Part shown: piece after piece, positions 1,317-60,620 of the stretch
How the letters are laid out: the number at the start of each line of letters is the position of its first letter
Numbering within the stretch: the first letter of the stretch is position 1
IMG/VR virus record: IMGVR_UViG_3300047553_000365
Coordinates: 1-64,000 of that record
From: a virus
DNA length: 64,000 nucleotides
Strand: one strand, 5' to 3'
Made by a program: the position numbers and the translations under genes
Notes under the pieces: generated by a model
What the model was told of the DNA's origin: nothing
The model's input: only the letters and a program-made list of their open reading frames with translations
The model's database searches: none

Positions 1317-1328
1317 TAAATAAAATAT

Positions 1329-1865
1329 ATGAAAACTTTTATAGAATATTGGTTAATGAGTGAAAATGCAGCACCTAGGTCTTATGCGTGTTTAATGCTA
1401 GACTGTGAAGAATTACTACCAAAAATTAAAGAAATTCAAAGTAATATTAAGGAATCTGATATATATAATGAAGAAGGTCATGGATTAGAAAAAGAACCAC
1501 ACATTACGGTTCTTTATGGGATTCATGAACAATCCCCACAATTAGTGAAGGATCAAATGGATCTATACCCTGTAACATATACTCTTACTGGATTATCATT
1601 ATTTGAAAATGAAGAATATGATGTGTTAAAATGTTCTGTAGATTCTGAATCTCTACATGCTCTTAATAAACAAGCTAGAGAATTAGAACACACTAATAAT
1701 TACCCAGATTATATACCACATCTCACAATAGCATATTTAAATCCCGGAGAAGGAAAGAAATATTTAAAAATGAAATCACCTATATTTGACAAAGAATTAA
1801 AGTCCGATAGATTCATTTTCTCTGATAAAGACGGAAATCAAACAAAATGGAAAGTTGAAGGATGA
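1329..1865 (+). CDS. 2H phosphoesterase (2'-5' RNA ligase-like)
   Basis: 178 residues. Two H-x-T-x motifs, HITVLYG near residue 58 and HLTIAYL near residue 132, are the paired catalytic motifs of the 2H phosphoesterase fold (LigT, cyclic phosphodiesterases). Family members act on 2'-5' linkages or 2',3'-cyclic phosphates, for example at RNA ends. The gene follows tRNA-Tyr and precedes an S4-domain protein, so a tRNA-end role is plausible but inferred. The N terminus MKTFIEYW resembles the shared leader peptide seen on many proteins here and may mark it for packaging in the capsid. Confidence 0.8.
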   Translation: MKTFIEYWLMSENAAPRSYACLMLDCEELLPKIKEIQSNIKESDIYNEEGHGLEKEPHITVLYGIHEQSPQLVKDQMDLYPVTYTLTGLSLFENEEYDVLKCSVDSESLHALNKQARELEHTNNYPDYIPHLTIAYLNPGEGKKYLKMKSPIFDKELKSDRFIFSDKDGNQTKWKVEG

Positions 1866-2756: not shown

Positions 2757-2828
2757 GCAATGTTCGTCTAACGGCTAAGACAGGAAACTCTAAATCTCTC
2801 AATGCGGGTTCGATTCCCACACATTGCA
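2757..2828 (+). tRNA. tRNA with CTA anticodon (candidate amber reader)
   Basis: Acceptor GCAATGT/ACATTGC is a perfect 7 bp; the D stem is GTCT/AGAC and the T loop TTCGATT. With U33 conserved, the loop CTCTAAA gives anticodon CTA, which reads UAG. The anticodon stem GGAAA/TCTCT has a G-U pair and an A-C mismatch, and the T stem has one C-A mismatch, so the gene may be weak or decayed. CCA is not fully encoded (ACC). Confidence 0.65.
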
Positions 2829-2830
2829 CC

Positions 2831-9186: not shown

Positions 9187-9216
9187 AAGGGTGGGTTAAA
9201 TACCCGCCCTTTTTAT
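9187..9216 (+). terminator. Rho-independent terminator
   Basis: AAGGGTGGGT and ACCCGCCCTT form the stem around a short loop, followed by a T run, 26 bases after the exported-protein gene. Confidence 0.85.
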
Positions 9217-9228
9217 TGCCCAAATGGG

Positions 9229-9256
9229 TTGACAAACCCCCTCCCTATGCTAAAGT
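9229..9256 (+). promoter_or_regulatory. Sigma70 promoter with extended -10
   Basis: TTGACA at 9229, 16-base spacer ending in TGC, TAAAGT at 9251. ATG follows at 9264, so the leader would be very short. Confidence 0.7.
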
Positions 9257-9263
9257 AATACAT

Positions 9264-9872
9264 ATGAATAAAGCCATCGAAAATTGCTCGCCTAAATTTA
9301 AGAAGTTCTTCGCATGGTCATGTGATTTTCTTAAGGAACATAATAAGAAGTTAGTAATTAAAAATACTAAAAAAATTAAGTACTTAGAAGATGGTACTTA
9401 TTGTTCTGGGTGGTGTACAGGAGAGGAAATTGTTGTTGCTGCAAAGCACCATATGTTTCAAGAAGTCTACTGCCATGAGTTTTGTCACATGTTACAAGCA
9501 ATTGAAAAAGACCCTCTCTGGGAACAGGATAATGGTAAGTTTTGGACCAATATGGTTGAAGGAACTCTTTGTATAAAAGATTGGGATCAAGCCTTTGGAT
9601 TGATTCAATTGGAAAGAGACTGTGAACGAAGAACCATTCAGCTTTCTAAAAAGTGGGATCTATTCGATACTAAAAAGTATGCCCAAAAAGCCAATCTGTA
9701 TCTTCAATACTACCAATACGTTTTTCTTAAGAAAACGTGGAGGTCTTCTACTTCAATTTATAAACCAAATCTGGTTAAGGTCATGCCTGATAAACTTCTT
9801 CCATTATCTAAATTACAAATAATTGATATGGAACTAATGAAACTATACGAAAAAGAAATAGGAAAAAAATAA
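9264..9872 (+). CDS. Putative zinc metallopeptidase-like protein (HEFCH)
   Basis: 202 residues from ATG 9264, which lies just behind the -10 box. HEFCHMLQ near residue 73 matches the HExxH zincin signature, with nearby acidic residues as possible third ligands. Not assignable to a named peptidase family by eye. Confidence 0.65.
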   Translation: MNKAIENCSPKFKKFFAWSCDFLKEHNKKLVIKNTKKIKYLEDGTYCSGWCTGEEIVVAAKHHMFQEVYCHEFCHMLQAIEKDPLWEQDNGKFWTNMVEGTLCIKDWDQAFGLIQLERDCERRTIQLSKKWDLFDTKKYAQKANLYLQYYQYVFLKKTWRSSTSIYKPNLVKVMPDKLLPLSKLQIIDMELMKLYEKEIGKK

Positions 9873-19918: not shown

Positions 19919-20213
19919 TCTCTGGAAAGAAAGTCTAGCCCTAATTGGGTGCTGTTTCATAATTAAATACGGAACAATTTTAGACTTCATAAGGAAACCA
20001 CTAAAGAAACTAAAATTTTTTAACGAATTATTATCATGTTCACTCTGTATAGGCTTTCACGTTGGATTTTGGAAAGTGATTCTGTTTGGGAATCACTCAA
20101 TGCCGGATGCATTATTCTTAGCATTCTATTCTTCCTCAATATGTTGGCTGGCTGACCATCTAGTAGATGTCATGCAAACCTTCATTTATGGTCGTGATAA
20201 GAACGATCAATAA
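19911..20213 (+). CDS. DUF1360-like membrane protein
   Basis: 100 residues from TTG 19911. NELLSCSLCIGFHVGFW matches the LLxCxxCxGFW motif of DUF1360, flanked by hydrophobic helices. Function unknown. Its end overlaps the end of the convergent CCA-adding enzyme gene. Confidence 0.65.
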   Translation: MADLWKESLALIGCCFIIKYGTILDFIRKPLKKLKFFNELLSCSLCIGFHVGFWKVILFGNHSMPDALFLAFYSSSICWLADHLVDVMQTFIYGRDKNDQ

Positions 20214-21687
20214 TCTGTTTAGCTTTTCTAAACACATCATTCTCAGTCACAGTTTTACCACTGAGTAACATATCAGCAACCCAATCTTGGAGTTTTGGTA
20301 AGTAGATACCAAGTTGCTTTCTATCCTGATTAAACTTCGGAAACATTTCCATCAGTTTATTACCGTTGATAATAGCGGACACCTGTTTCTTTAATTCGTC
20401 TGCACCACCGGGAACAGTATTAAGTTTTGCTTCTGCTCTCTCAATCCTTTCCTTAAATTCTTGTGGATTAAACATTGATGGTCCTCTGGATGCTTCATCA
20501 CAAAAGGCTACGGACTTCACAACATTCCAAGAAGGATCGTGAATCAGTTTTCTTAATGTCTTAAGATTTAACTTATCCAGATCATGAACTAACATATGCT
20601 TTGCCACAGCAGAAAGAATATCCTTCTTCTCTTGTGGTCCAAGATTATTAAACTTCAATCTGTTAAAGATGTTTTGAACGATGGGAACTCCCGCAGCTTC
20701 ATGTCCATGATAGTTGCTAAATCCTCTCTTATTAGTTCCTCTAGTAGTTGCCTTACCGAAATCGTGAAAGAGGACTGCTAGATTTATAATAGGGTCTTTA
20801 AATGGAGATGCCTTAAGACATTCATGAATATGACCCAACACTTGTGATTCCCCTTCAGGATGATGTTGTGGATCATGATCGAATCCTCTCATACTGGTAA
20901 ACTCTGGTAGAATATCGTCAAGAATACCAGCTTCATCCAATTTGGATAGAAAGTTTGATAGAGTTTTTCCCGACTTAGCTGCCTTATAGAACTCCTGTGC
21001 AATACTCTCCATAGAGATTAACTTAGGATCTAGTAACAATCCCTTCAGTTCCTTTGCAGCATTTAGAGTATTCTGCTCAATATCGAATCCCATCTTTGCA
21101 GCAAATCTAAAGACTCTCAGAAGCCTTGTGGCATCTTCCTTGAATCTCTCTTTGGGATTGCCAACTGCTCTGACAACTTTGTTCTTAAGATCCTCTAGAC
21201 CACCCTGATAGTCCACAATTCTACCATTAGAATCCAGACCAAAACTATTAATAGTTATGTCTCGTCTTTTAGTATCAGTTTCAAAGTCATTTACTTCCGT
21301 GGATACATTTGCCTGTCTACCCATTTCGGTTTGAGAATCCTCTCTAAACTTAGCTAGGTCAAAGGCATACTCTCCAAAGATGATCTTGAAAACTGGTTGA
21401 GAATCGTTCTTGGAGATGTTTCTTAGTTCAAAGTGCTTTGATAAGTCCTCAAAGGGAATATTGGTCGCCATGTCCACATCATCAATGGGATCACCCATCA
21501 AAAGATCCCTAGGAACACCCCCCACAATATAGATCTCCCCCCTAGGAAAAAGACCGTTAATCTTCTTCATAAGGGCTAATCCGACCCGTAATTCCTCAGA
21601 ATTTTGTAGGGCTTTCTCCCATTTGTCCGAAAAGTCGTCAATATTATAATTGACGCTTTCGGTAAAGAATTTCAGAAACGACTTCAT
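20182..21687 (-). CDS. cca: CCA-adding enzyme / tRNA nucleotidyltransferase
   Basis: 501 residues. The class II nucleotidyltransferase head is clear: IYIVGGVPRDLLMG (GG motif), DDVDMATN (catalytic Asp pair), KRRDITINSF and later RLLRVFRFA. A C-terminal HD domain follows (AVLFHDFGKATTRG). It adds or repairs 3' CCA on tRNAs; most tRNA genes here lack encoded CCA, so it would complete them. The N terminus MKSFLKFFTES resembles the capsid-targeting-like leader on neighbouring proteins, so the enzyme may be packaged and injected; that is inference. Confidence 0.88.
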   Translation of the reverse strand: MKSFLKFFTESVNYNIDDFSDKWEKALQNSEELRVGLALMKKINGLFPRGEIYIVGGVPRDLLMGDPIDDVDMATNIPFEDLSKHFELRNISKNDSQPVFKIIFGEYAFDLAKFREDSQTEMGRQANVSTEVNDFETDTKRRDITINSFGLDSNGRIVDYQGGLEDLKNKVVRAVGNPKERFKEDATRLLRVFRFAAKMGFDIEQNTLNAAKELKGLLLDPKLISMESIAQEFYKAAKSGKTLSNFLSKLDEAGILDDILPEFTSMRGFDHDPQHHPEGESQVLGHIHECLKASPFKDPIINLAVLFHDFGKATTRGTNKRGFSNYHGHEAAGVPIVQNIFNRLKFNNLGPQEKKDILSAVAKHMLVHDLDKLNLKTLRKLIHDPSWNVVKSVAFCDEASRGPSMFNPQEFKERIERAEAKLNTVPGGADELKKQVSAIINGNKLMEMFPKFNQDRKQLGIYLPKLQDWVADMLLSGKTVTENDVFRKAKQIIDRSYHDHK

Positions 21688-21722
21688 ACATATATACTTA
21701 CCACAATTGCTAAATAATTACA

Positions 21723-22358
21723 GTGGAAAATTTCAAAACATACTACGAAAGTTTCTCTCTAAACCCCCTAAACTGGTTCAAATCGAAGGTTAAGGCACAG
21801 GAGAAGGACATTCAAAAAAGGTATATTGCCCATGCCAGAGAGAACTTTAAGAAGATGAAAGACCTTCTTAAAAGTAAGGGATATTATATTCACAAACACG
21901 AATTTTCATATACAGTAAGACAGGGTAAGATGGTGGGGTTGTCTGGTAAAAAATATGGGGGGTATACTGGAAAAGTGGGTAGTGGTCCCTTAGATAAAAA
22001 GTATATTCAAACTCTATTCACATTAGCACATGAAGTTGGACATGTTTTACAATGGAACGATGCCACAGAAAGAAAATTAATGGCGGATACTTTTAAGCAA
22101 GAATTAGAAAAAACAAATGATTTGGAACATTATCACTTTCTTGTAAGTATGCACCAATTATGGTATGAGATAAATGCATGGGAAGAAGGATTACAATTTA
22201 TTCCTGATGAACTTAAATTCTATTACCTAAGTTACGCTGTTCCTGCTTTGACATCATATATGAAGTATGATTTACAAGAATATTCCAGATATGAACTAAT
22301 TCAAGAACCCCTAGCAAAGCTTATGGCTGAAAGACGTAGGCTAACTCCGACTAAATAA
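21723..22358 (+). CDS. Putative zinc metallopeptidase (HEVGH)
   Basis: 211 residues from GTG 21723. TLAHEVGHVLQW near residue 102 is a classic HExxH zincin site. The N terminus MENFKTYYESFS is a variant of the shared leader peptide, suggesting packaging in the virion. Substrate unknown. Confidence 0.7.
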   Translation: MENFKTYYESFSLNPLNWFKSKVKAQEKDIQKRYIAHARENFKKMKDLLKSKGYYIHKHEFSYTVRQGKMVGLSGKKYGGYTGKVGSGPLDKKYIQTLFTLAHEVGHVLQWNDATERKLMADTFKQELEKTNDLEHYHFLVSMHQLWYEINAWEEGLQFIPDELKFYYLSYAVPALTSYMKYDLQEYSRYELIQEPLAKLMAERRRLTPTK

Positions 22359-22362
22359 TAAC

Positions 22363-22812
22363 ATGCTGGCATTTAATAAACTTTTTCTTATGCTTAGGGA
22401 ACAACATTCGGAAGATTGGTGGGCCAGTATAGATCTTGTTCCCAGAAACATAATGGGGATGAAAACAAGCTTGAATGATGTTCCTCCATTTAAACCGTAT
22501 GGCTTTTGGGTGGATAAGTCTGGAAACTTTGCTGCTTGTAGATATCAGCAACATTATAGCGTGGGAAAGGATATAATTAGATCGGCTAATAGATATCTGG
22601 AAGAACAAGGGAAACCATTGATTGAAGTTCCCCAAGACAATATTTATGGGACTCTATTTCGTGCTGGATGGATAAGAGTAACTTTGGAGGGGGATCAATT
22701 ATATTATGAGTCCGGTAAAAATTTCGGTCACATGCCCACACAATCACAGATAAAATTTATGAAGTATGTGAAGGACTTATACAAAACAGAAGACGAAAAA
22801 TATAGAATATGA
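22363..22812 (+). CDS. PYGFWxDKSGNF-domain protein, single copy
   Basis: 149 residues with PYGFWVDKSGNF, a central helix (IRSANRYLEEQGKP), GWIRVTLEGD and PTQSQIKFMKYVKDLY. The same domain is found twice in the next gene, which overlaps it by 4 bases. It looks like a domain seen in virion-associated phage proteins; function unknown. Confidence 0.7.
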   Translation: MLAFNKLFLMLREQHSEDWWASIDLVPRNIMGMKTSLNDVPPFKPYGFWVDKSGNFAACRYQQHYSVGKDIIRSANRYLEEQGKPLIEVPQDNIYGTLFRAGWIRVTLEGDQLYYESGKNFGHMPTQSQIKFMKYVKDLYKTEDEKYRI

Positions 22813-23618
22813 AATCTTTTAAACAATATTTTGAAGAAGAAAATGGTGGAGAATCTATTGATTTGACAAGAGTTCCTATTAATGCTATTGGTCTTAGACA
22901 TGGTATAAGAAGTCTTCCTGAACAAAAACCTTACGGCTTTTGGATTGATAAGTCAGGTAATTTTATACCTACACAGAACCATAACAAGACAGCAGAGATT
23001 ATAGTTAATGCTGCAATATCATGGATGAAAAAACAGGGTATTCCAACCCCCCATAATTTGAGGGATGCCTTTATGATACTCATGTATGATAATGGCTGGA
23101 TGAGAGTTGTTACTACAACAGGTAGAATTTATAGTGAAGTGGGAATTGGTAGAAAATCTACCCCTAGTCAACTTAAGGCTGTGGAGGATATGAAACTCAT
23201 GTATCTAAAGCAAAGAGATTCTGTTTTGGTGGGAGAAGCAGTAGCTCCAGAACTTTTAAGTCAAATGCAGATGATTCCTGATTCTACCGTTGGGTTCTCT
23301 AATACATTAGCAAATCTGCCCGCATCTCCACCATACGGTTTCTGGGTTTCAAAACACGGTAACTTTATACCAGTGAAAACTATGATGGGACACTCTGATG
23401 TGGGGGGACAGATTGTAAGAAAAATGGAAGAAATATTAGGAACAAAACTTATACCTGAAGATGATTATTCTGATGAATACTTTATAATCATGGATATAAT
23501 GGATGCATTACATTATTGTAGAGTGGTGAGAGATAGGGGGACATATAAATTTGATGTCAAGATTCCTTTAACCAGAGGTCAAAAAAGATTCAAGGATGCT
23601 CTGGAAACGGCATACTGA
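22809..23618 (+). CDS. PYGFWxDKSGNF-domain protein, two copies
   Basis: 269 residues: leader-like start MKSFKQYFEEEN, then domain 1 (KPYGFWIDKSGNF ... GWMRVVTTTG ... TPSQLKAVEDMK) and domain 2 (PPYGFWVSKHGNF ... CRVVRDRGTYKF ... RGQKRFKDAL). Paralogue of the upstream gene by tandem duplication. The leader suggests it enters the capsid. Confidence 0.7.
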   Translation: MKSFKQYFEEENGGESIDLTRVPINAIGLRHGIRSLPEQKPYGFWIDKSGNFIPTQNHNKTAEIIVNAAISWMKKQGIPTPHNLRDAFMILMYDNGWMRVVTTTGRIYSEVGIGRKSTPSQLKAVEDMKLMYLKQRDSVLVGEAVAPELLSQMQMIPDSTVGFSNTLANLPASPPYGFWVSKHGNFIPVKTMMGHSDVGGQIVRKMEEILGTKLIPEDDYSDEYFIIMDIMDALHYCRVVRDRGTYKFDVKIPLTRGQKRFKDALETAY

Positions 23619-23621
23619 TTC

Positions 23622-23649
23622 TTGACAATGGGATGGGGAATGCTAATAT
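23622..23649 (+). promoter_or_regulatory. Sigma70 promoter with extended -10
   Basis: TTGACA at 23622, 16-base spacer ending TGC, TAATAT at 23644; ATG at 23655 gives a very short leader. Confidence 0.65.
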
Positions 23650-23654
23650 AGGGT

Positions 23655-23924
23655 ATGAGTAATACCAATTATTATGTAACTTCGGGATCTAGTGTTTATG
23701 GTGGAACATTATACAATACAAACACGAATGGCATCTTTACGAATATTAACAATGTATATAATTACAACGAAATCAAATTTCATGACGAGAGTGGGTTGGG
23801 TGTGGGTAGGCTTTATTGGGATGAAGAGGGCTTTCACTTTGAGGGGAATTTAGACGAATCTGCCGCAATATTTTTTAATATGGTGGGGCATAATCTAGTT
23901 GAAGCAGCTAGATCTGCTAAATAA
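23655..23924 (+). CDS. Hypothetical protein
   Basis: 89 residues with a Ser/Thr/Asn/Gly/Tyr-rich first half (SGSSVYGGTLYNTNTNGIF) and a small C-terminal domain. Possibly a virion or head-decoration type protein by composition only. Confidence 0.7.
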   Translation: MSNTNYYVTSGSSVYGGTLYNTNTNGIFTNINNVYNYNEIKFHDESGLGVGRLYWDEEGFHFEGNLDESAAIFFNMVGHNLVEAARSAK

Positions 23925-23928
23925 TACT

Positions 23929-24399
23929 ATGAAGTCTAAAGATCAAGAAAACCTTTCTAAAATATACCTAGAATATATTGTTAAGGGAAATGAATATCCT
24001 CCTGAACCACCCAAGGGAACTCTTAACTTTGATCGTAATTCCAAACCAAGCGATGAGCTTGATGTGGGGGAAGAGGGGGAATGGAAGGACATTTTAGAGA
24101 ACATTGTCAATCTGGGGGTGAATGCATCGACCTATCTTTCAGTTCGTGGTGGCAATCACCAATGGTTAAAAGGGTTGCAGGATACTATGGACTATATTGA
24201 TTACGCTCTAAGTAAACTAGACGATCATGGTAAACAGTCAATTAAAAATTACATTAAGTATGCTGTTCAAGATAAGAACCATGCAGAAGATCCTGAAGAA
24301 TCGACAGCCTTAAACTTTTTAGTATCAGACTTCTTTAAAAATGAAGTGGTTAAATACTACAAACCAAAACGTAAAGTATCTCTATTAAACTTCCTTTAA
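23929..24399 (+). CDS. Hypothetical protein
   Basis: 156 residues from ATG 23929. N-terminal YLEYIVKGNEYPPEPPKG then a helical domain. Similar starts occur in T4-like neck or tape-measure-adjacent proteins, but no assignment is made. Converges with the metallopeptidase gene at 24396. Confidence 0.65.
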   Translation: MKSKDQENLSKIYLEYIVKGNEYPPEPPKGTLNFDRNSKPSDELDVGEEGEWKDILENIVNLGVNASTYLSVRGGNHQWLKGLQDTMDYIDYALSKLDDHGKQSIKNYIKYAVQDKNHAEDPEESTALNFLVSDFFKNEVVKYYKPKRKVSLLNFL

Positions 24400-25157
24400 A
24401 CCTTAGTTGAAAGGTGTTTTTTCAATCTTCTATTAGGTTCTTCTCTAGAACCTGTAACTCTCATAAGAGTTAAAATGGCATCCTTGTGTTCTTTAGGAAG
24501 CTTGTTAAAGTGTTCAATGCCAGTGGCCCAAAGTTCATAGTTATTTGATAACCCATAAGAATTTGCCCAATCCACCAATTTTCTCATCTCTTCACGAACA
24601 GCATCATTTCTCTTTCCTGAAAGCATCTTAGGGTTCTTAGGATATACCTTTCTTTTTGTCGCAGCATTGGCTTCATCATAATTAGTTTTTAATATATGGT
24701 CATAATGTTGTTTTACTGCTTTCTTAAAGTTTGAACTATTATTAAACATCCATAGATGCGCCCACTCATGAATAATTATTTGTGTGGCATAATACGGACT
24801 ATCTACTAAAGAATTGTAATCAACCTCCATATACTTTCCTTTTTCATATGCTGCTCCCCCCACAGCTACACTACTTTTTCCAGTGTTTTGATTTTTCACT
24901 TTTGAAAGATCTGCCACAACAACATTAGAGTGCATGGAAGGAAATCCCAATTTATGTATGTAATTACGAGCCAATTCAAACACATGTTTAATTCTCTTGC
25001 TTTTAACATTGAGTCTTACCTCTTCATCAATGTAGGTAGGATCATTTAGAAGATCCTTTTTAATAAAAACGGAAAACATTGGAATATCATATTGATGCTC
25101 CAAGACTGCGGATTTTCGAAAAGCTTCGGGTAGATAGTAGAAATCCTTAAAACTCAC
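24396..25157 (-). CDS. Putative zinc metallopeptidase (HEWAH)
   Basis: 253 residues. IIHEWAHLWMFN near residue 130 is an HExxH zincin site. The start MSFKDFYYLPEAFRK is a loose variant of the leader peptide on nearby proteins. Substrate unknown. Confidence 0.7.
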   Translation of the reverse strand: MSFKDFYYLPEAFRKSAVLEHQYDIPMFSVFIKKDLLNDPTYIDEEVRLNVKSKRIKHVFELARNYIHKLGFPSMHSNVVVADLSKVKNQNTGKSSVAVGGAAYEKGKYMEVDYNSLVDSPYYATQIIIHEWAHLWMFNNSSNFKKAVKQHYDHILKTNYDEANAATKRKVYPKNPKMLSGKRNDAVREEMRKLVDWANSYGLSNNYELWATGIEHFNKLPKEHKDAILTLMRVTGSREEPNRRLKKHLSTKV

Positions 25158-25170
25158 ATTAGTATTTACC

Positions 25171-25198
25171 TTGACGCTTAAGGATTTCGTGATATGGT
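25171..25198 (+). promoter_or_regulatory. Sigma70-type promoter
   Basis: TTGACG at 25171, 16-base spacer, TATGGT at 25193; next ATG at 25216. Confidence 0.5.
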
Positions 25199-25215
25199 GG
25201 GTAAAAGGTTGAATT

Positions 25216-25656
25216 ATGAAACAAGCACTATGTACAAAATGTTTCGGGACGGGGCTTACGATGGGGTGGGTTCCTAGTTATAACAATCCTGATAATTATA
25301 ATTTCGATCCCCCCGCAGAAATATGTTCTTGTGGAGCCTATGAAAAGATGAAAAATAGAGCGCGTATTCAAGACCTAAAAAAAGAATTGGGAGTAGATCA
25401 GTCTAATTGTAAAACCTGCCGACACCTTAAAGGGGAATCTGATGACGAATATGGGTCTAACTTTTATTACTATTGTAGTAAGAGAGAGTCTTTTAGTTGG
25501 TTAAAATCCTTTCCCTTTAAGAAGGATATGGATTGTTGGGAGCCTACCTTTTGGGCAACCAAGCTTGGGGAGGATGTGGATTGGATAGATGGTGCGGGTG
25601 CTAATGAAGCTCACGCTCAGTTTAATGCCATTTTGAATAGGTTTGAGAGAAACTAA
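25216..25656 (+). CDS. Cysteine-rich (zinc-binding) hypothetical protein
   Basis: 146 residues with CTKCFGTG, ICSCGAY and CKTCRHLKG ... YYCSKRES. The first part resembles DnaJ-type or zinc-ribbon fingers. Probably binds two zinc ions. Unknown role. Confidence 0.65.
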   Translation: MKQALCTKCFGTGLTMGWVPSYNNPDNYNFDPPAEICSCGAYEKMKNRARIQDLKKELGVDQSNCKTCRHLKGESDDEYGSNFYYYCSKRESFSWLKSFPFKKDMDCWEPTFWATKLGEDVDWIDGAGANEAHAQFNAILNRFERN

Positions 25657-25684
25657 GAGAGATAATACTAAAATAATAATGTAG

Positions 25685-25984
25685 ATGACAAGAGTGGTAA
25701 ACATTCAAAAAGAGCCTTATGATGTAATTATAGACCGTAGCACCATATGGGGAAACCCCTACAGCCACAAGGAAGGAACACTAGCCAAGTATAAAGTGAA
25801 GACCAGAGGAGAAGCTGTGGCGGCATATAGAGCCTATATTATGGATAACCCGGACTTAATGGAAAGGCTTTCTGAATTAGAGGGAAAAGTGTTGGGATGT
25901 CATTGTAAACCACTACCTTGTCATGGGGACATTTTGGTAGACCTGATTAATAATCGACCCAAGATAAACCTAGAGAATATGTAA
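25685..25984 (+). CDS. DUF4326-family protein
   Basis: 99 residues. IDRSTIWGNPYSHKEG near the start and VLGCHCKPLPCHGDILVDL near the end match DUF4326, common in phages. The Cys/His cluster may bind metal. Function unknown. Confidence 0.8.
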   Translation: MTRVVNIQKEPYDVIIDRSTIWGNPYSHKEGTLAKYKVKTRGEAVAAYRAYIMDNPDLMERLSELEGKVLGCHCKPLPCHGDILVDLINNRPKINLENM

Positions 25985-26004
25985 TTTTTACACTAAATAA
26001 ATAA

Positions 26005-27153
26005 GTGTATCCCACCTTTAAGACATATTTTGAGTCCCGACAGATTCCACCCAATATCGAACAAAAGATATTGTCCATGAATGGATATGTGTTTAGGTAT
26101 GCCGAATTTCTAGACTCTAGAGGTGAAGAGCTTCCTCCCTATCTGTTAAAAAAGTTGGCAGAAACTCCCGAAATGGCATATAGGTGGGCATCCTACCTAA
26201 AGGAAAATAATAAGGATGTTCCAGAGTCAATATTGACAGGAATTTTAAATCAAACCCATTTTGCCTACTGCCCTAACTATCCTGCTCGTTATGCTCGTCT
26301 ATTGGGGGTTAGAGGAGAAGAGATTCCACCAAAATTCATGAAAAAACTATTGGAAGCCGATCCATATGTTATAGCATCATTTGCAATGGTAGTTATAGAG
26401 AATGGACGAACTCCTCCCGATGTTGTTATGAATAGAATAAAAGAACTTCCAGAGGCAGCATATTTCTTTATAAAAGAATTAATATATAATAAAAAAGATA
26501 TTCCTGAAGTATATATACAAACTGTTGCTAAATCTCCCTTTCATTCAAGACATCTAAAACAATTATTTGATAATGAAAACATGGAAGTTCCTTCCATTAT
26601 TCGTAGTGCAGCATCCTTGTGGAATGAATCTAGAGTTAATGTTCCCGACTCCATAATGGATAGAATTTCTAAATCGTATCATTACTCCTATTTGTTAGCT
26701 GTCGAGTTTACTAAGAATAATAGAAAAGTGCCTAAAGAATTTATCACCAGAATTACACATTCGTCACAACATGCAGATCATTATGCAAGAGCGTTGATTG
26801 AAATGAATAAGCCAGTTCCTAGAGTAATCATAAATGCTATAGCCAGAGAACCTTACAGAGCCACATTATTTACCATCTTTTTAACTAGCCATAATAAAGG
26901 TGTTCCCGCAATTATTCGTGAAGTATTAACTAAAAAAGCCCCCTCGTTTTCTTACGAATATTTAGATACTGTATTATCCGCATATAGAGATGTTGGGTTT
27001 CATCAAAGCATTTATAATGGAGCAATTAATAACCTCGCTAAGAGTAATGAAAATGCATTCATTACAGTGAAACTCTTAAGTAGACACGGAATAGACATTC
27101 CTCCAAAACTACAAAAAGCAAAAGACAATTGGATTGCCGATCTAAACTCATGA
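26005..27153 (+). CDS. Helical-repeat protein with leader peptide, paralogue 1
   Basis: 382 residues from GTG 26005. Leader FKTYFESRQIPP, then about nine repeats of roughly 36 residues with the form (E/D)VPxxIxxxI ... AxxYAxxLxxRGEE(I/V)P. This predicts an alpha-solenoid. First and longest of five tandem paralogues; function unknown. The leader suggests a capsid-packaged protein. Confidence 0.75.
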   Translation: MYPTFKTYFESRQIPPNIEQKILSMNGYVFRYAEFLDSRGEELPPYLLKKLAETPEMAYRWASYLKENNKDVPESILTGILNQTHFAYCPNYPARYARLLGVRGEEIPPKFMKKLLEADPYVIASFAMVVIENGRTPPDVVMNRIKELPEAAYFFIKELIYNKKDIPEVYIQTVAKSPFHSRHLKQLFDNENMEVPSIIRSAASLWNESRVNVPDSIMDRISKSYHYSYLLAVEFTKNNRKVPKEFITRITHSSQHADHYARALIEMNKPVPRVIINAIAREPYRATLFTIFLTSHNKGVPAIIREVLTKKAPSFSYEYLDTVLSAYRDVGFHQSIYNGAINNLAKSNENAFITVKLLSRHGIDIPPKLQKAKDNWIADLNS

Positions 27154-27794
27154 AAGACTTTAAAACATACTTCGAATCTCAACAGATTCCGCCAAAGGTT
27201 TACAATACTATTCTAAACAATCATTTGGCGTTGATTAAGTATATCTATTTTTTAGTTAAAAGAGGAGATGAGATTCCAAAAGAGGTATATGATAAAATTT
27301 TGAAACATCCGGGGATTGCCTTAGATTATGCCATAGCAATGATTAAAAACGAAAGGGTACACCAAATACCAAAAGATGTTAAACAGGTAATGTTGGATCA
27401 AAAGGACTTTTATAAGTACGCCAATACACCTATTTATTTTGCCCAAACATGTGTTCATCATGGAGTGGAAATTCCTAAAGAATTTTTAGAAAAGATAGCA
27501 TTGGCTGAAGGAGGAATAGACGATTTGAGAAGATTTATATTATATCTTATTGAAAATAATAAAGAGGTTCCTCTCATTCTTTTGAATGCAGTTAAAGAGA
27601 TGGCGGGTGCTTTGTATGATATTGCAAAAAGATATGTTAATCGTGGAAAGAGGGTTCCAGAAGAACTTATATCAATCATATCCCAAAATTCATTTGCATC
27701 TTATCAAGTGATGCTTTGGTTGAATAGTATAAGTAGACCAGTTCCAGAAGTTATCAGAAGATCGGGAGAGGAGTGGGAAAAGGATCTGATATGA
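27150..27794 (+). CDS. Helical-repeat protein with leader peptide, paralogue 2
   Basis: 214 residues from ATG 27150 overlapping the previous stop. Starts MKDFKTYFESQQIPPKV and continues with about five of the 36-residue repeats (KRGDEIPKEVYDKIL, HHGVEIPKEFLEKI). Confidence 0.75.
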   Translation: MKDFKTYFESQQIPPKVYNTILNNHLALIKYIYFLVKRGDEIPKEVYDKILKHPGIALDYAIAMIKNERVHQIPKDVKQVMLDQKDFYKYANTPIYFAQTCVHHGVEIPKEFLEKIALAEGGIDDLRRFILYLIENNKEVPLILLNAVKEMAGALYDIAKRYVNRGKRVPEELISIISQNSFASYQVMLWLNSISRPVPEVIRRSGEEWEKDLI

Positions 27795-28312
27795 AACCGT
27801 TTATAGAATATTTTTACGAAGCACAAATTCCTAAAATATTAATAGGGGGTATTGAAAAAAGTCCATACTATGCAAAAGAGTATGCTAAGTTTCTAGTAAA
27901 CAAGGGGGAAGAAGTTCCCGAATCTATTATAAATGCGGTTGCAATTGATATAGATTGGACCTTGGAGTTTACAGAACATCTAATTAAAAATAAAAAACCC
28001 GTTCCCCCGATTTTACATAATAGAATTGTTGGTTATAAGTATAGAGAATATTTGGGGGATTATTATGGTTTATTGTATGTATATCATGGAGAACTATCGG
28101 AAGAACAATGGAATGTAATATGTTCTAATCCCCCAACAGCTTATAGATTTGTTAGAGAATTACATAGTGCAAACTATCCTCCTCCAGTACCAGAAAAAGT
28201 GTTGGATGTTATAGCAGCAGACCGACTTTACGCTAGCAGATATTATGATCTATTACTTAGATACGGTTTAGTGGTTCCCGAAAAAATACGAGCAGCAGTA
28301 AGAAATAGATAA
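27791..28312 (+). CDS. Helical-repeat protein with leader peptide, paralogue 3
   Basis: 173 residues from ATG 27791. Leader is MKPFIEYFYEAQIPK; repeats include NKGEEVPESIINAV. Slightly more diverged than its neighbours. Confidence 0.75.
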   Translation: MKPFIEYFYEAQIPKILIGGIEKSPYYAKEYAKFLVNKGEEVPESIINAVAIDIDWTLEFTEHLIKNKKPVPPILHNRIVGYKYREYLGDYYGLLYVYHGELSEEQWNVICSNPPTAYRFVRELHSANYPPPVPEKVLDVIAADRLYASRYYDLLLRYGLVVPEKIRAAVRNR

Positions 28313-28313
28313 A

Positions 28314-28847
28314 ATGAAAGACTTTAAGACATACTTCGAAGCCCGAAAAATTCCCTACTCTATTATATCTAAAATAGAGAGCAATTCCTATTGGGCCACA
28401 CAGTATGCTTGTCTTTTGATTAGAAAGGGAGAGGATGTTCCTTTATCGACTTTGGAAGCCATCATGCGTGATTCCTATTGGTCATTACAATATGTGAAGT
28501 ATCTAATAAGAAAAGATCAACCCATTCCTGATATGATAGCAGAATTGATTATGAGAATAAGATCCCGACTATCAGAACTATTAATATGGTCCCTTGTAAA
28601 CTATATAGAGATTCCTGAAAAATTCTGGAAGGCTCTAATAAGGAATCATAATGATATATATTTATTTCTTATAGAACTTGAGGATGAACGTAGTGCGGAA
28701 AACGACAGTTTTCAAACCATTCCTGATTTTGTAATCGATGCCATTGCTAAAGATCCCTACACTGTTGCTGTTTATACATCCATTTTAAAAAGGAGAGAAT
28801 TGGAAGTTCCTCCTATTATAGCTCAAGCTCCAACCCGAATCAGATGA
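28314..28847 (+). CDS. Helical-repeat protein with leader peptide, paralogue 4
   Basis: 177 residues. Leader MKDFKTYFEARKIPYSI, repeats RKGEDVPLSTLEAIM and RRELEVPPIIAQ. Overlaps paralogue 5 by 4 bases. Confidence 0.75.
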   Translation: MKDFKTYFEARKIPYSIISKIESNSYWATQYACLLIRKGEDVPLSTLEAIMRDSYWSLQYVKYLIRKDQPIPDMIAELIMRIRSRLSELLIWSLVNYIEIPEKFWKALIRNHNDIYLFLIELEDERSAENDSFQTIPDFVIDAIAKDPYTVAVYTSILKRRELEVPPIIAQAPTRIR

Positions 28848-29365
28848 AAGACTTTAAAACATATTTCGAATCCCGCCAAATACCTGATCCTATTATGAAT
28901 AGGATTAAGCGTAATTATTATTCTTGTATTAACTTTGCAGAATTCTTAATAGAAAAGGGAGAAGAGGTTCCTGAAGATATCTTATTAATTATTTTGAAGG
29001 ATATATATTGGGTACAAGTATTAATTAAACGCTTAGTAGCGTCTCGTTTACCCATTCCAGAAAAATTAATATTTAATGCATCATTATTTCCCTCCACGGT
29101 CCGAGAACTCATCGTTTTCATGGTTCGATACGAAAGAGAGATTCCCGAAAATTTCTGGAAAGCTATGAGTAGTGATCCTCAAATAACCTATGGCCTTATT
29201 AGAGACTTACTGGAAGTTGGAGAAGATATTCCTTCACAGGCCATAGAGATCACTTCCAAGGACGAGAGATGGGCATTTAACGTCAGACACATATTGTTAA
29301 GACACAAACGACATGTTCCCGAAGTATTAAATGCTCCTGCTGATAAATGGGAAGCCAAATACTAA
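28844..29365 (+). CDS. Helical-repeat protein with leader peptide, paralogue 5
   Basis: 173 residues. Leader MKDFKTYFESRQIPDPI, repeats EKGEEVPEDILLII and RYEREIPENFWKAM. Closest to paralogue 4, consistent with recent local duplication. Confidence 0.75.
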   Translation: MKDFKTYFESRQIPDPIMNRIKRNYYSCINFAEFLIEKGEEVPEDILLIILKDIYWVQVLIKRLVASRLPIPEKLIFNASLFPSTVRELIVFMVRYEREIPENFWKAMSSDPQITYGLIRDLLEVGEDIPSQAIEITSKDERWAFNVRHILLRHKRHVPEVLNAPADKWEAKY

Positions 29366-44609: not shown

Positions 44610-45006
44610 AATAGTTACCGAAGTAATAGATTCCGTCATTTTCTTCATATTGTTGGTATTTTGGATAAGGAATAGGTTCTGGTTCAGGTTCCTCTGAATA
44701 GATTAGATATCCTTCCTTATCATAGAGATACTTATATTCCTTTTTACCATCAAGAATATATTGATACCTAAGAATGCCAGTATCAAAGTATCTATACTTC
44801 TCTATGAAAGTCTTTCCACTAGTATGCTTAACAAGATTATTATTCTTATCATACTTCCAAGTCTGCTCCATACCAGTAGATGAAAGAGTCCTAGAAACAT
44901 TATTCTTATCATCGTATTCAATCCAACGCTCGTAGTTCGGACCTTTACGATGAATCATTCTACCCTTTTCATCTCTGGTAGTAACTGGAAGTTTGAAGCT
45001 AATCAT
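44608..45006 (-). CDS. YD-repeat-like small protein
   Basis: 132 residues with several short Y-x-x-x-G/N repeats (EYDDKNNVSRTL, KYDKNNNLVKHT, RYFDTGILRYQY, YLYDKEGYLIYS) like RHS/YD or toxin-immunity MORN-type repeats. Overlaps the SprT-like gene by 8 bases. Confidence 0.6.
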   Translation of the reverse strand: MISFKLPVTTRDEKGRMIHRKGPNYERWIEYDDKNNVSRTLSSTGMEQTWKYDKNNNLVKHTSGKTFIEKYRYFDTGILRYQYILDGKKEYKYLYDKEGYLIYSEEPEPEPIPYPKYQQYEENDGIYYFGNY

Positions 45007-45364
45007 AATTCAATAACCTTCTTGGAGGAAATCTCCCGTTAGTAATACCTACAACCTTACACCATTTCTTAAAGCTTTTACCATGAAACTCAAGTTTTCC
45101 CTTCTCATCATAGAAAGTTCCTCTTTCATCATAGTCTAACTTATGAGCAAGTTCATGTTTCAATACCCATTCAAACAGAGGAAAGTATTCCAAACATTGA
45201 TTGCTAATTCTTATCTCATTCGCATCATCAGCCCAAACATACTGCCCAAGGTTGCACTTACTATTATCAAGAACATCATGGAAGGTGACTTTTGTATCAG
45301 CCACCTTCCATTGCTTAAGAGTTAAGCGAGCATAAAGCTCTGCTTCTTCTCTGGTAATTCCCAT
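44999..45364 (-). CDS. SprT-like metalloprotein, short form
   Basis: 121 residues from ATG 45364. VLKHELAHKLDYDE gives HExxH and LEFHGKSFKKWCK supplies the third ligand region of SprT/Spartan proteins. Lacks a C-terminal zinc ribbon. Spartan relatives cut DNA-crosslinked proteins; phage role unknown. Confidence 0.7.
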   Translation of the reverse strand: MGITREEAELYARLTLKQWKVADTKVTFHDVLDNSKCNLGQYVWADDANEIRISNQCLEYFPLFEWVLKHELAHKLDYDERGTFYDEKGKLEFHGKSFKKWCKVVGITNGRFPPRRLLNYD

Positions 45365-45365
45365 A

Positions 45366-45545
45366 TTAATAAGGATTGCTATTACTCTTGCAGAAGTTAC
45401 CAGCAACAATCTTACCATACTTCTTTTGAACAAACTTTCTGCCATTCAAAAGACTATGGGTAGTCATAAGCATACCACCCTTTGGTTTCTTGAACACTTC
45501 CGAACGCCATGACGACTTCAACGGTTTATGCGAATTGTTAATCAT
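45366..45545 (-). CDS. Small basic hypothetical protein
   Basis: 59 residues, very basic (KPLKSSWRSEVFKKPKGG, NGRKFVQKKYGKIV). Stop is followed by ATG of the SprT-like gene (TAATATG). Confidence 0.6.
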   Translation of the reverse strand: MINNSHKPLKSSWRSEVFKKPKGGMLMTTHSLLNGRKFVQKKYGKIVAGNFCKSNSNPY

Positions 45546-46930: not shown

Positions 46931-47261
46931 AATCATAATCCCAAGGATCAATTTCTTTCACCCTACCTTTTTGGGGAATCTTATCAAACTGTTCAGTATT
47001 AATAAGATCACGGGTAGCGGCTCTATCTTTCTTTTTAGTATATCTTTTAACAATTTTAGAAAGTGCCGTGGATTGTTTGTTATTAGAAGTCCAAGTTTCT
47101 GCCAAATTGATAAGTTCTCTTGAAGTATAAGAATACTCTCCACCTTCAAAAAGGTTGTGTTGAATTTTGTAAAGATTTTTATTAACTTTACGAATGTTCA
47201 CACACCAAGAACAATTCTCCTTAACAAGTTTTATTGCCTCTTTAATATTCATTTGCGGCAT
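46929..47261 (-). CDS. Hypothetical basic protein
   Basis: 110 residues, basic (KIVKRYTKKKDRAATRD), helical. Overlaps the start side of the SprT-like gene end. Confidence 0.65.
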   Translation of the reverse strand: MPQMNIKEAIKLVKENCSWCVNIRKVNKNLYKIQHNLFEGGEYSYTSRELINLAETWTSNNKQSTALSKIVKRYTKKKDRAATRDLINTEQFDKIPQKGRVKEIDPWDYD

Positions 47262-47773
47262 TTGAATTTAAGTTCTCCTCCACACAAGTTACAAGAATAA
47301 ATTGTCCCCCTTCTAATCCTATTATGCCTAATAGAGCTAAGATGATGTTCCTTACACTTACACTCATAGACATAATTCCTACCACCCTTAACCTTAGTAA
47401 CACTAATGTCATAGTTATGACAACGGCTAGGTTCAAGACCATAAACCTTAATCATAATATCTTGCCAAGACTTACCATGAATGTCCCGGCGACCACCCTT
47501 GTATTGATAACCATTAACTTCCTTATCAATCCAATGAGCAACTTCATGAGGAACAGTCCTATTAAGGAAATCCTCTTTATGATGCTCTGCGAAATCCAAT
47601 TGGAACATAAGTTCTTTCTTGGTAAAGTTACAATAACCACCCCAAGTTCCTTTACGCTTAAAGATGATATTGTTTGGGCGAGAAAACTTTCTACCATAGA
47701 AGTCTTCTGCTTGTTTGAAACATTGTAATACTTTGATTACAATTTGATCTTTCATGGGAAGTGTATCGATCAT
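47249..47773 (-). CDS. SprT-like protein with zinc ribbon
   Basis: 174 residues. TVPHEVAHWIDKEV is the HExxH site, DIHGKSWQDIMIKVYG the conserved follow-up segment, and CKCKEHHLSS ... YSCNLCGGELKF a C-terminal zinc ribbon, the full SprT layout. Probable DNA-associated protease. Leaderless start. Confidence 0.85.
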   Translation of the reverse strand: MIDTLPMKDQIVIKVLQCFKQAEDFYGRKFSRPNNIIFKRKGTWGGYCNFTKKELMFQLDFAEHHKEDFLNRTVPHEVAHWIDKEVNGYQYKGGRRDIHGKSWQDIMIKVYGLEPSRCHNYDISVTKVKGGRNYVYECKCKEHHLSSIRHNRIRRGTIYSCNLCGGELKFKCRK

Positions 47774-58967: not shown

Positions 58968-60620
58968 TTAAACTTCGACCATGTTTAGAATCTCTTGGTC
59001 AAGAGCTTCTTCCATGAGTTCGTAAGTGGTCTTAATCTTGCCGCTAAGGAAAGAGATAACGGATGCAGAGTATCCACCGAAGTAATACACATTAAGCGCA
59101 TTCTTACCAGTTTCAAACTTCTCACCAGTTCCCTTACCATAGTAGTTACTTTGGAGATTCCAAAGAACGATTACAAATTCATCAACATATTCCTTAGAGA
59201 ATCCTGCATTTCTAAGAGTAGTGCGAGCAGCATCCACATTAGTCTTATTCAAACTAGCAGGATTAAACTCACTATCACTAATGCACAGAATTCCACGGGG
59301 GAAATCAGATTCGGGAGTTCCTTGTTTCTTCATCTTGCAGAACAAGTTAATAACACTTTGGAAGTTGGTTGAACCAACAAATCCTGACTTATCATTCTTC
59401 CACTTGGAAGTAGGAGAATGACCATTCCACTTGTGAAGCTTTGCATCAGAATTGAATTCAATCCAATGTCCTGCGAAAGTTCCAGTAAGGAATTCACTAA
59501 AGTAAAGAGCAAGAGCCTTACCAATATCATAGCAAGTAGACTTAGTTCCAGTAGCAATGCTACCCATAGAACCAGAAGTGTCACGCACCACGATTAGGTT
59601 GGTATAGTTTTCACCTGCCTTAGCCTTATCAACAAGAGTTTGAAACTGCTTATCAATAGTAAGTTCCTTGTTAGAATCCCCTTGCCAATGACCTTCAAAG
59701 AGTTCATGGACAAATCCAGTATACTTAACAGCAGTAGTCTCAGGCTTCTTAATCCATTCAGAATACTTCTCACTAAGACCTTGATTCTTAAGGAACTTGC
59801 TCTTAACAAGAATCGACAATGCACGACCATGAATCTTACTAAAGTCGATATCCTTAAACTTACCTTGTGAGATAAGCTTTTGCCAATCGTGTGCAGATCC
59901 ACTAGTCTTAAGCTTACGATACTTCTTGTAGTTAGCAGGAGAAGTCTTGCTTCCAAACAGTAGATAACAAATCCACTTAGCAATTTGATTATTAGACTGT
60001 GCATCCACAGTAGTAGCTTGAGACTTAGCCTTGATTTGTGGAAGATACTTCTTCACAAGATCGCAGGTCTTATCATTATTAAGTGCAGCCAGAATCAGTT
60101 CACCAAACTTATCCCAATCCAATTGACGGTTTTCCCATCCATTGTAACTAAGATCATATTGCAGCATGGTAAACACATCATGCCATGAACCCACAGAAAC
60201 AAACAGCAGAATGTTATTCCAGAAAGAATCAGGAGAAACAGTGTGCAGCCAAATCATACGCATGATAGCTTCATGCTTAAGTTCAGTTCCAAGTTGAGGA
60301 TTCTTAGTCTTACTACCATCAGGCAGACTAACAATACGAGGAATGGTTCTAAGGAACAAAGTAAACTTTACTGCCTTAAGAGGATCTTCACCCCAAAGAG
60401 TAGATGCATCAGCAGCAATCTCAGAAAACTTGCGGGGAGTCTTGTAATTACCAGCCTTAGTAAATTGATCGACTAGCGTAGAGCCTGAAGATTTAAACTT
60501 CAATGCTCCATTACCAGAACGAGTCTTATTCGATTCTGCATTGGCATTAGCAAGAAACTCATTAACTTTTTTACGAGTCACTTTACGCACGGTTTCGGCT
60601 TGTCTTTTATTCTCAAACAT
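58968..60620 (-). CDS. Ro60/TROVE-DUF2828-like protein with vWA domain
   Basis: 550 residues. A helical-repeat N-terminal two thirds (AVKFTLFLRTIPRI, LLFVSVGSWHDVFTML) is followed by a von Willebrand A domain with an intact MIDAS motif, VVRDTSGSMGS, and LCISDSEFNP later. This layout is shared by DUF2828 proteins and the TROVE ring protein Ro60, which binds Y RNAs and defective RNAs. The tRNA-like RNA array follows it and a Thg1-like gene precedes it. Which of the two families is closer needs a profile search. Confidence 0.75.
   Translation of the reverse strand: MFENKRQAETVRKVTRKKVNEFLANANAESNKTRSGNGALKFKSSGSTLVDQFTKAGNYKTPRKFSEIAADASTLWGEDPLKAVKFTLFLRTIPRIVSLPDGSKTKNPQLGTELKHEAIMRMIWLHTVSPDSFWNNILLFVSVGSWHDVFTMLQYDLSYNGWENRQLDWDKFGELILAALNNDKTCDLVKKYLPQIKAKSQATTVDAQSNNQIAKWICYLLFGSKTSPANYKKYRKLKTSGSAHDWQKLISQGKFKDIDFSKIHGRALSILVKSKFLKNQGLSEKYSEWIKKPETTAVKYTGFVHELFEGHWQGDSNKELTIDKQFQTLVDKAKAGENYTNLIVVRDTSGSMGSIATGTKSTCYDIGKALALYFSEFLTGTFAGHWIEFNSDAKLHKWNGHSPTSKWKNDKSGFVGSTNFQSVINLFCKMKKQGTPESDFPRGILCISDSEFNPASLNKTNVDAARTTLRNAGFSKEYVDEFVIVLWNLQSNYYGKGTGEKFETGKNALNVYYFGGYSASVISFLSGKIKTTYELMEEALDQEILNMVEV

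What the first reader, a model, noticed from the sequence alone, without database searches (positions are those of the whole stretch)
20182..29365. Shared N-terminal leader resembling the T4 capsid-targeting sequence
Otherwise unrelated proteins begin with variants of M-K-x-F-K-x-Y-F-E-S: the CCA-adding enzyme (MKSFLKFFTES), a metallopeptidase (MENFKTYYES), PYGFW proteins (MKSFKQYFEE), five helical-repeat proteins (MKDFKTYFES) and the 2H phosphoesterase at 1329 (MKTFIEYW). T4 internal proteins carry a similar N-terminal targeting peptide (MKTYQEFIAE type) that is cleaved in the prohead. This would make these proteins, including RNA enzymes, injected with the DNA.
Basis: partly seen in the sequence, partly recalled or inferred. 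Interest (0 to 1): 0.78.

Follow-up and report, generated by a model that had tools for sequence, protein, structure and literature searches.

The report
Phage-head delivery tags on diverse enzymes
A set of unrelated proteins of an uncultivated T4-like phage begins with the same kind of short tag that phage T4 uses to load proteins into its head for injection, which suggests that a tRNA-repair enzyme, peptidases and a possible immune-evasion enzyme enter the cell together with the viral DNA.

Summary
The leader is real and not chance: 9 of 233 gene calls in the 138.7-kb record match it against about 0.6 expected; 12 proteins, 11 in the window, carry it or a close variant. The same motif applied to T4 gives 3 hits, two being the annotated internal proteins ipII and ipIII. 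A DNA pattern for it starts ORFs in 84 of 98 viral-contig matches (13 families), against 13 of 67 in bacterial genomes. The CCA-adding enzyme keeps a leader in 7 of 7 related loci. In two relatives it sits on an ADP-ribosyltransferase, the class of T4's injected Alt; in the window's record and another relative that domain is missing exactly between two glutamates. Relatives encode a gp21-like prohead protease. Best explanation: a T4-type capsid-targeting sequence. Weak points: no virion data; neither gp21 nor gp23 was found in the window's own record; only 2 of 11 window leaders have T4's L/I-x-E cleavage site; phiM12 and Atu_ph07 show no clear enrichment. The principle is known; this aromatic variant and its cargo were not found in print in the searches made.

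The parts
1329..1865 (+). 2H phosphoesterase, Acb1 / 2'-5' RNA ligase-like; leader MKTFIEYWLMSE = 1329-1364
   Evidence: Pfam 2_5_RNA_ligase2 1.1e-8 and Acb1 4.1e-8; F4, Y7, E12, N13 and both HxT motifs invariant in 3 sequences
1317..1322 (+). TAAATA, late-promoter-like site before 1329
20182..21687 (-). CCA-adding enzyme / tRNA nucleotidyltransferase; leader MKSFLKFFTE = 21658-21687
   Evidence: Pfam PolyA_pol 3.2e-24; phrog_2244 2.6e-59; best PDB hit starts at residue 41; leader in 7 of 7 related loci
21723..22358 (+). HExxH metallopeptidase (no Pfam hit); leader MENFKTYYE = 21723-21749, GTG start
   Evidence: HEVGH motif; 51% identical orthologue in G002 keeps F4, Y7, Y8, E9
21711..21716 (+). 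TAAATA before 21723
22363..22812 (+). PYGFW protein 1; variant leader MLAFNKLFLMLRE = 22363-22401
   Evidence: no Pfam or PHROG hit
22352..22357 (+). TAAATA before 22363
22809..23618 (+). PYGFW protein 2; leader MKSFKQYFEE = 22809-22838
   Evidence: no Pfam or PHROG hit
24396..25157 (-). SprT-like metallopeptidase; leader MSFKDFYYLPE = 25125-25157, L-P-E before A
   Evidence: Pfam SprT-like 0.0084, below cut-off; HEWAH motif; a similar G002 protein can start MITFKHYIIREG
25163..25168 (-). TAAATA before 24396-25157
26005..27153 (+). helical-repeat protein 1; leader MYPTFKTYFE = 26005-26034, GTG start
25994..25999 (+). TAAATA before 26005
27150..27794 (+). helical-repeat protein 2; leader MKDFKTYFE = 27150-27176
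27791..28312 (+). helical-repeat protein 3; leader MKPFIEYFYE = 27791-27820
28314..28847 (+). helical-repeat protein 4; leader MKDFKTYFE = 28314-28340
28844..29365 (+). helical-repeat protein 5; leader MKDFKTYFE = 28844-28870

Best explanation
The leader is a T4-type capsid-targeting sequence. Inferred course: late in infection these proteins are made together with the virion proteins; the N-terminal helix, with aromatic residues at positions 4, 7 and 8, binds the scaffold core of the prohead; a gp21-like S77 protease cuts after the glutamate at about residues 9-13; the freed protein stays in the head with the DNA and is ejected at the next infection. The cargo is then a time-zero kit: a CCA-adding enzyme to mature or repair tRNAs, an Acb1-like 2H phosphoesterase that may destroy immune-signal nucleotides, metallopeptidases, and proteins of unknown function. 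Shown: a conserved leader on unrelated bodies, its conservation in orthologues, its presence on an ADP-ribosyltransferase in relatives, a late-gene type upstream signal, and an S77 protease in relatives. Inferred: scaffold binding, cleavage, packaging, injection and cargo function.
For: Enrichment at protein starts (9 of 233 against 0.6). In T4 the same motif gives 3 hits, two of them ipII and ipIII, annotated internal virion proteins. Viral against bacterial pattern matches at ORF starts: 84 of 98 against 13 of 67, in 13 families. DUF6267 family: 42 of 42 matches (25 distinct N-termini) have [IL]-x-E followed by A, G, S or N at residue 16, 17 or 19, and in the one scanned the Pfam domain begins at residue 20. 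CCA enzyme: leader in 7 of 7 related loci, 5 distinct N-termini, down to 34% identity. 2H enzyme: M1, F4, Y7, E12, N13 invariant in 3 sequences. ART domain with leader in G002 and G003, and its exact absence between two glutamates in G000 and G004. S77 protease in 5 of 6 searched records with a leader-bearing CCA enzyme. G009 leaders MKTFKQFILES, MKTFKQFMLES and MKTFSEFINES are close to T4's MKTYQEFIAE. TAAATA near start codons of leader genes: 6 of 12 against 27 of 221 in G000, 6 of 8 against 55 of 279 in G002.
Against: No virion data. No S77 protease and no gp23 above cut-off in the window's own record. Only 2 of 11 window leaders have L/I-x-E, while the gp23 of the relative G002 has L-E-E at the corresponding place, so cutting of the window's leaders needs a protease that accepts F or Y. 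One CCA orthologue has D at position 10, which in T4 blocks processing but not targeting (PMC9026906, passages). The motif is not clearly enriched in phiM12 (0 of 324) or Atu_ph07 (5 of 817 against 2.4), both with an S77 protease. CCA enzymes of Vibrio phage F100 and Tunturi_5, and the DUF6267 relatives of HTVC008M and S-RSM4, lack it. G010 has a leader-bearing CCA enzyme but gave no S77 hit.
Confidence: 0.8

Rival explanations
1. The leader targets proteins to the prohead core, but in this phage it is not cut by the prohead protease; the aromatic residue at the P3 place makes it an uncleaved or differently processed tag.
For: Only 2 of 11 window leaders fit T4's L/I-x-E; the gp23 of G002 has L-E-E; one CCA orthologue has D at position 10; in T4 Asp at 10 still allows targeting (PMC9026906, passages).
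Against: A glutamate is kept in 11 of 11 window leaders and in the 2H and metallopeptidase orthologues; the ART domain is missing exactly between two glutamates; one distant CCA orthologue has L-T-E followed by A.
Confidence: 0.12
2. The leader is an amphipathic N-terminal helix or an initiation-friendly sequence that serves expression, membrane attachment or another assembly site, unrelated to the capsid.
For: Short motifs can arise more than once; 13 of 67 pattern matches in bacterial genomes also start ORFs.
Against: Concentration in phage proteins, the match of positions 4 and 7 to the T4 mutagenesis, recovery of ipII and ipIII by the same motif, and ART cargo in relatives.
Confidence: 0.05
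3. The leader only reflects gene duplication and common descent of the proteins, with no sorting role.
For: Five of the window's 11 leader proteins are tandem paralogues.
Against: The other bodies show no relation; among the paralogues the leader keeps 5-10 of 10 residues while the rest keeps 17-32%; 13 families carry it in other viral contigs.
Confidence: 0.02

Closest known systems
[quoted passage not shown]
   Same: N-terminal, about 10-19 residues, on otherwise different proteins; aromatic residues at 4 and 7, large hydrophobic at 8, glutamate at about 10; S77 prohead protease in relatives; an ADP-ribosyltransferase among the cargo of two relatives.
   Different: F or Y instead of I or L before x-E in most window leaders; more and other cargo (CCA enzyme, 2H enzyme, metallopeptidases, helical repeats); packaging not shown.
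phiKZ / SPN3US propeptides cut by a diverged gp21 homologue
   Same: Propeptides ending in glutamate on head and ejection proteins of giant phages (PMC5694885, passages; PMC9026906, passages).
   Different: There mostly much longer (several over 100 residues) and with S/A-x-E sites; here 9-19 residues with an aromatic pattern.
Polyvalent proteins injected by phages and conjugative elements
   Same: Overlapping cargo: an ART-PolyVal domain in G002 and G003 and an acetyltransferase with a leader in G009.
   Different: Polyvalent proteins join 2 to 15 domains in one chain (PMC5512222, abstract in listing; passages); here mostly single-domain proteins, each with its own tag.

Membership tests
T4-type capsid-targeting sequence | Short N-terminal peptide (T4: 10-19 residues) on proteins with unrelated mature parts | tested here: met
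   11 window proteins of at least 6 kinds, leaders of 9-13 residues; 13 families in viral contigs
T4-type capsid-targeting sequence | Targeting residues at positions 4 and 7 (Y4, F7 in T4) | tested here: met
   aromatic at both in 8 of 11; pair shifted by one in 2 of 11; F4 with L7 in 1 of 11; T4 positions from PMC9026906 (passages)
T4-type capsid-targeting sequence | Cleavage site L/I-x-E at the end of the leader | tested here: inconclusive
   E in 11 of 11, but L or I at P3 in only 2 of 11 window leaders; 42 of 42 in the DUF6267 family of other phages
T4-type capsid-targeting sequence | gp21-like S77 prohead protease in the same phage | tested here: inconclusive
   none found in the window's 138.7-kb record, which also gave no gp23 above cut-off; over cut-off in G002, G009, G011, G012 and G013, not found in G010
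T4-type capsid-targeting sequence | Made with the late virion proteins | tested here: inconclusive
   TAAATA near the start codon of 6 of 12 leader genes against 27 of 221 others; a sequence signal only, no transcript data
T4-type capsid-targeting sequence | Binding to a gp22-like scaffold | not tested
   G002 has a 294-aa ORF at the scaffold position, between the protease and gp23; not tested by any family search
T4-type capsid-targeting sequence | Protein present in the head, shortened, and ejected into the cell | not testable with these tools
   needs virion proteomics and infection experiments
phiKZ/SPN3US-type propeptides | Mostly long propeptides with S/A-x-E sites | tested here: not met
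   window leaders are 9-13 residues and 0 of 11 end in S-x-E or A-x-E
Polyvalent proteins | Many domains in one polypeptide | tested here: not met
   no window leader protein showed more than one unrelated Pfam domain; the CCA enzyme's parts belong to one enzyme
Acb1 (anti-CBASS 2H phosphoesterase), for the protein at 1329 | 2H fold with HxT/HxT active site and cleavage of cyclic oligonucleotides | tested here: inconclusive
   HIT 58-60 and HLT 131-133 present and invariant in 3 sequences; Pfam Acb1 4.1e-8, but 2_5_RNA_ligase2 slightly better at 1.1e-8; the 3 PDB hits are all Acb1, weak; substrate not testable here

The most novel reading that the evidence does not exclude
The leader is a sequence-readable injection code spread over several lineages of uncultivated T4-like phages. 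Each lineage loads its own kit of separately tagged proteins; here the kit includes a CCA-adding enzyme and an Acb1-like enzyme, so tRNA repair and neutralisation of immune signals begin at DNA entry, before any phage gene is expressed.
Probability: 0.55. Interest if true: 0.82.

Novelty: new variant of a known kind. Interest (0 to 1): 0.62.

Why it matters
If right, the proteins injected by uncultivated T4-like phages can be read from genome sequence. It would put an RNA-repair enzyme and a possible counter-immune enzyme among injected proteins, beyond the few T4 examples, and turn the open question of what such phages inject into a direct proteomic test.

Tried and rejected
No near DNA relative in the phage collection. 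No relatives of the second PYGFW protein or of the first helical-repeat protein among annotated phages, nor of that PYGFW protein in viral contigs; helical-repeat relatives were sought in 6 records and found only in G000 and G001. Their functions stay unknown. The structure model of the metallopeptidase was poor (pLDDT 59.5, residues 1-33 under 50) and was not searched; the second structure job was not used.

phiM12 likewise shows no clear enrichment (0 of 324 against 0.7; 3 against 1.3). XacN1 was only searched for the protease; its paper was seen in passages.

MAFFT misplaced the N-termini of the PYGFW proteins and the first residues of the ART-less proteins; I did not use those columns. PADLOC gave only weak, irrelevant hits. 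A stricter motif asking for a T4-like site and a small residue after it found 3 of 233 in the window's record, one of them taken as chance. That near-identical leader DNA of three helical-repeat paralogues (1-2 differences of 27 nt) means gene conversion was considered; nine codons cannot decide it. The count of residues in 20 curated leaders is circular, as they were picked by the motif, and is not used as evidence.
Full report
What was checked. The window is bases 1-64000 of a 138,655-base virus record. It carries 25 tRNA genes, and beyond the window the record holds T4-like packaging and tail genes: terminase, sheath, tube and baseplate wedge. Eleven window proteins carry the leader or a close variant: the 2H phosphoesterase (1329), CCA enzyme (20182), metallopeptidase (21723), two PYGFW proteins (22363, 22809), a SprT-like protein (24396) and five helical-repeat paralogues (26005 to 29365). 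A twelfth lies at 115142 of the record.

Chance. The motif (an aromatic residue, a second one three residues on, a large hydrophobic one next, then Glu) matches the starts of 9 of 233 gene calls in the record against about 0.6 expected from internal segments. The five paralogues count as one family; 5 families against 0.6 is still unlikely (4e-4). The same motif gives 7 of 287 against 1.2 in the relative G002, 3 of 159 against 0.6 in G004, 4 of 243 against 0.9 in G007, and 3 of 254 against 0.8 in T4; two of the three in T4 are ipII and ipIII, annotated as internal virion proteins, the third is taken as chance. It gives 0 of 324 in phiM12 and 5 of 817 against 2.4 in Atu_ph07, both with an S77 protease, so the leader is not general to T4-like phages. 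A broader motif was framed after these results and is only illustrative (15 of 233 against 1.3 in G000, 9 of 365 against 1.2 in G009).

Outside the genome. A degenerate DNA pattern for M-K-x-F-K-x-Y-F-E found 86 stretches in viral contigs, a permuted pattern 10. Of 98 matches, 84 start ORFs of at least 80 aa, in 13 families that blastp does not join beyond residue 20; in bacterial genomes 13 of 67 do. Contig redundancy inflates the 84; the 13 families, 8 of them single sequences, are the fairer number. The largest family (44 members) is DUF6267; two others look, by weak Pfam hits below cut-off, like cytidylyltransferase-type nucleotidyltransferases and aspartyl or zinc proteases. The 42 DUF6267 matches recognised by their H-L-T-H-L-E type motif, with 25 distinct N-termini, have [IL]-x-E followed by A, G, S or N at residue 16, 17 or 19, and in the one scanned the Pfam domain begins at residue 20. 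This is what a cleaved propeptide before a mature domain should look like. DUF6267 relatives in HTVC008M and S-RSM4 have no such leader, so a body can occur without the tag.

Orthologues. The CCA enzyme: 7 of 7 related loci (one of them G002 itself) have a leader, with five distinct N-termini: MITFSKFFQES, MITFSKFFKES, MITYKKFLTDS, MKLFKNFFVEN and MNTFNKLYNSLTEA. The last is only 34% identical to the window protein, and its L-T-E before A is a T4-like site; the Asp in MITYKKFLTDS speaks against cutting there; the reading frame of the MKLFKNFFVEN copy stops after 182 residues. The search patterns lay at residues 12-25, close behind the leader, so enzymes without that region may have been missed; CCA enzymes of Vibrio phage F100 and Tunturi_5, found by tblastn, lack the leader. 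The 2H enzyme: 3 of 3 sequences keep M1, F4, Y7, E12 and N13, but the two relatives were first noticed through the broader leader motif. The metallopeptidase keeps F4, Y7, Y8 and E9 at 51% overall identity. The five helical-repeat paralogues share 5-10 of 10 leader residues but 17-32% of the rest.

The most telling locus. In G002 and G003 a protein with leader MIPFKQFFLE or MKTFLQFFLE carries an ADP-ribosyltransferase domain (ART-PolyVal, 1.4e-12 in G002, above the curated cut-off; 2 of 12 records searched) and then a domain starting YRHNLADGTP. In the window's own record (115142) and in G004 the ART domain is absent and the leader runs straight on: FFLE|YRHNLADGTP. In the longer forms the same domain follows LLSE| or IINE|. 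So one stretch between two glutamates, each in a protease-like context, has been gained or lost exactly. T4's Alt is an ADP-ribosyltransferase packaged in the head and injected; the ARTs of polyvalent proteins differ from the Alt clade in their active site (PMC5512222, passages).

Machinery. A gp21-like protease (Pfam S77) is over its cut-off in G002 (3.0e-30) and in G009, G011, G012 and G013, which have leader-bearing CCA enzymes; G010, the sixth such record searched, gave none. The window's record gave none, and no gp23 above cut-off (0.0154, 11.3 bits); it is probably a fragment. The gp23 of G002 has CLEE|A and that of G009 YLTE|N at the place where T4's has LTE|A (the places in G002 and G009 are my reading by eye), so a Glu-specific, L-x-E type protease is likely in this group. 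In G009 the leaders read MKTFKQFILES, MKTFKQFMLES and MKTFSEFINES, close to T4's MKTYQEFIAE, which links the aromatic variant of the window to the T4 form.

Mechanism. In T4 the first ten residues of IPIII suffice to enter the head; targeting lies mainly at residues 4 and 7, processing at 8 and 10, and gp21 cuts after L/I-x-E (PMC9026906, passages). The leader has the same layout: aromatic at both 4 and 7 in 8 of 11 window proteins, and a closing glutamate in 11 of 11, but L or I at P3 in only 2 of 11. I therefore take it as a capsid-targeting sequence, with targeting better supported than cleavage. Expression with virion genes is suggested by TAAATA within 18 nt of the start codon: 6 of 12 leader genes in G000 and 6 of 8 in G002, against 27 of 221 and 55 of 279 other gene calls (P 0.0026 and 0.0015; leader genes as listed). 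In G000 none of 120 gene calls starting between 30 and 90 kb has it, while 20 of 33 between 100 and 138 kb do. Four of the six leader genes without it in G000 (22809, 27150, 27791, 28844) overlap the gene before them by 4 bases and may be co-transcribed.

Cargo. The best PDB match of the CCA enzyme starts at residue 41, and 18 of the 25 tRNA genes as reported by ARAGORN end without CCA, so such an enzyme has work to do. The 2H enzyme is nearest to the Acb1 and 2'-5' RNA ligase families and has both HxT motifs; T4 acb1 is encoded next to ipI (PMC9117128, passages). Relatives add, with leaders, a retropepsin-like or zinc protease above cut-off and an M90-like metallopeptidase below cut-off and an acetyltransferase. 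Targets are unknown. That the kit serves repair and defence at DNA entry is inference, by analogy with T4 IPI, which is injected to block a restriction enzyme (PMC3012670, passages).

Novelty. The principle is known: a review says that T-even internal proteins are a highly diverse set with only a conserved CTS (PMC3012670, passages), and another suggests the CTS as a way for T4-like phages to take in various proteins (PMC9026906, passages). Searches for the CTS with phage and prohead protease (8 papers listed), with cyanophage (1 paper) and with metagenom (0 papers), and for CCA enzyme, phage and virion (12 of 51 listed), showed nothing on this variant or cargo in what I read, which was listings and passages; the library lacks most subscription papers. 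I call it a new variant of a known kind.

Noticed in passing
window 1317-1322, 21711-21716, 22352-22357, 25994-25999, 25163-25168; also structural genes at 96-134 kb of the record: TAAATA, like a shortened T4 late promoter, lies only 5-6 nt before these start codons, which would leave almost no 5' untranslated region for late mRNAs.
   Followed up: partly
record bases 108632-111082 (L004:7632-10082, minus strand), outside the window: An 816-aa relative of the leader-bearing helical-repeat proteins, without the leader, sits between the terminase and tail genes.
   Followed up: partly
58968-60620 (-) and 60718-61458 (-): An RNA-binding protein (phrog_850; Ro/TROVE-like by my recall) next to a tRNA-His guanylyltransferase (phrog_4717), adding to the RNA-repair set of this phage; neither has the leader.
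   Followed up: no
2757-2830 (+): ARAGORN calls a tRNA with anticodon CTA (tRNA-Pyl), possibly an amber suppressor.
   Followed up: no
G000:107987-108607 (-), outside the window: A late-gene-like ORF begins MSDHIRSFSEFYNSNILKES, a possible extended leader variant; no Pfam or PHROG hit.
   Followed up: partly
window 9216-9872 (+), 44999-45445 (-) and 47249-47773 (-): Further ORFs with zinc-peptidase-like HExxH signatures but without the leader.
   Followed up: no
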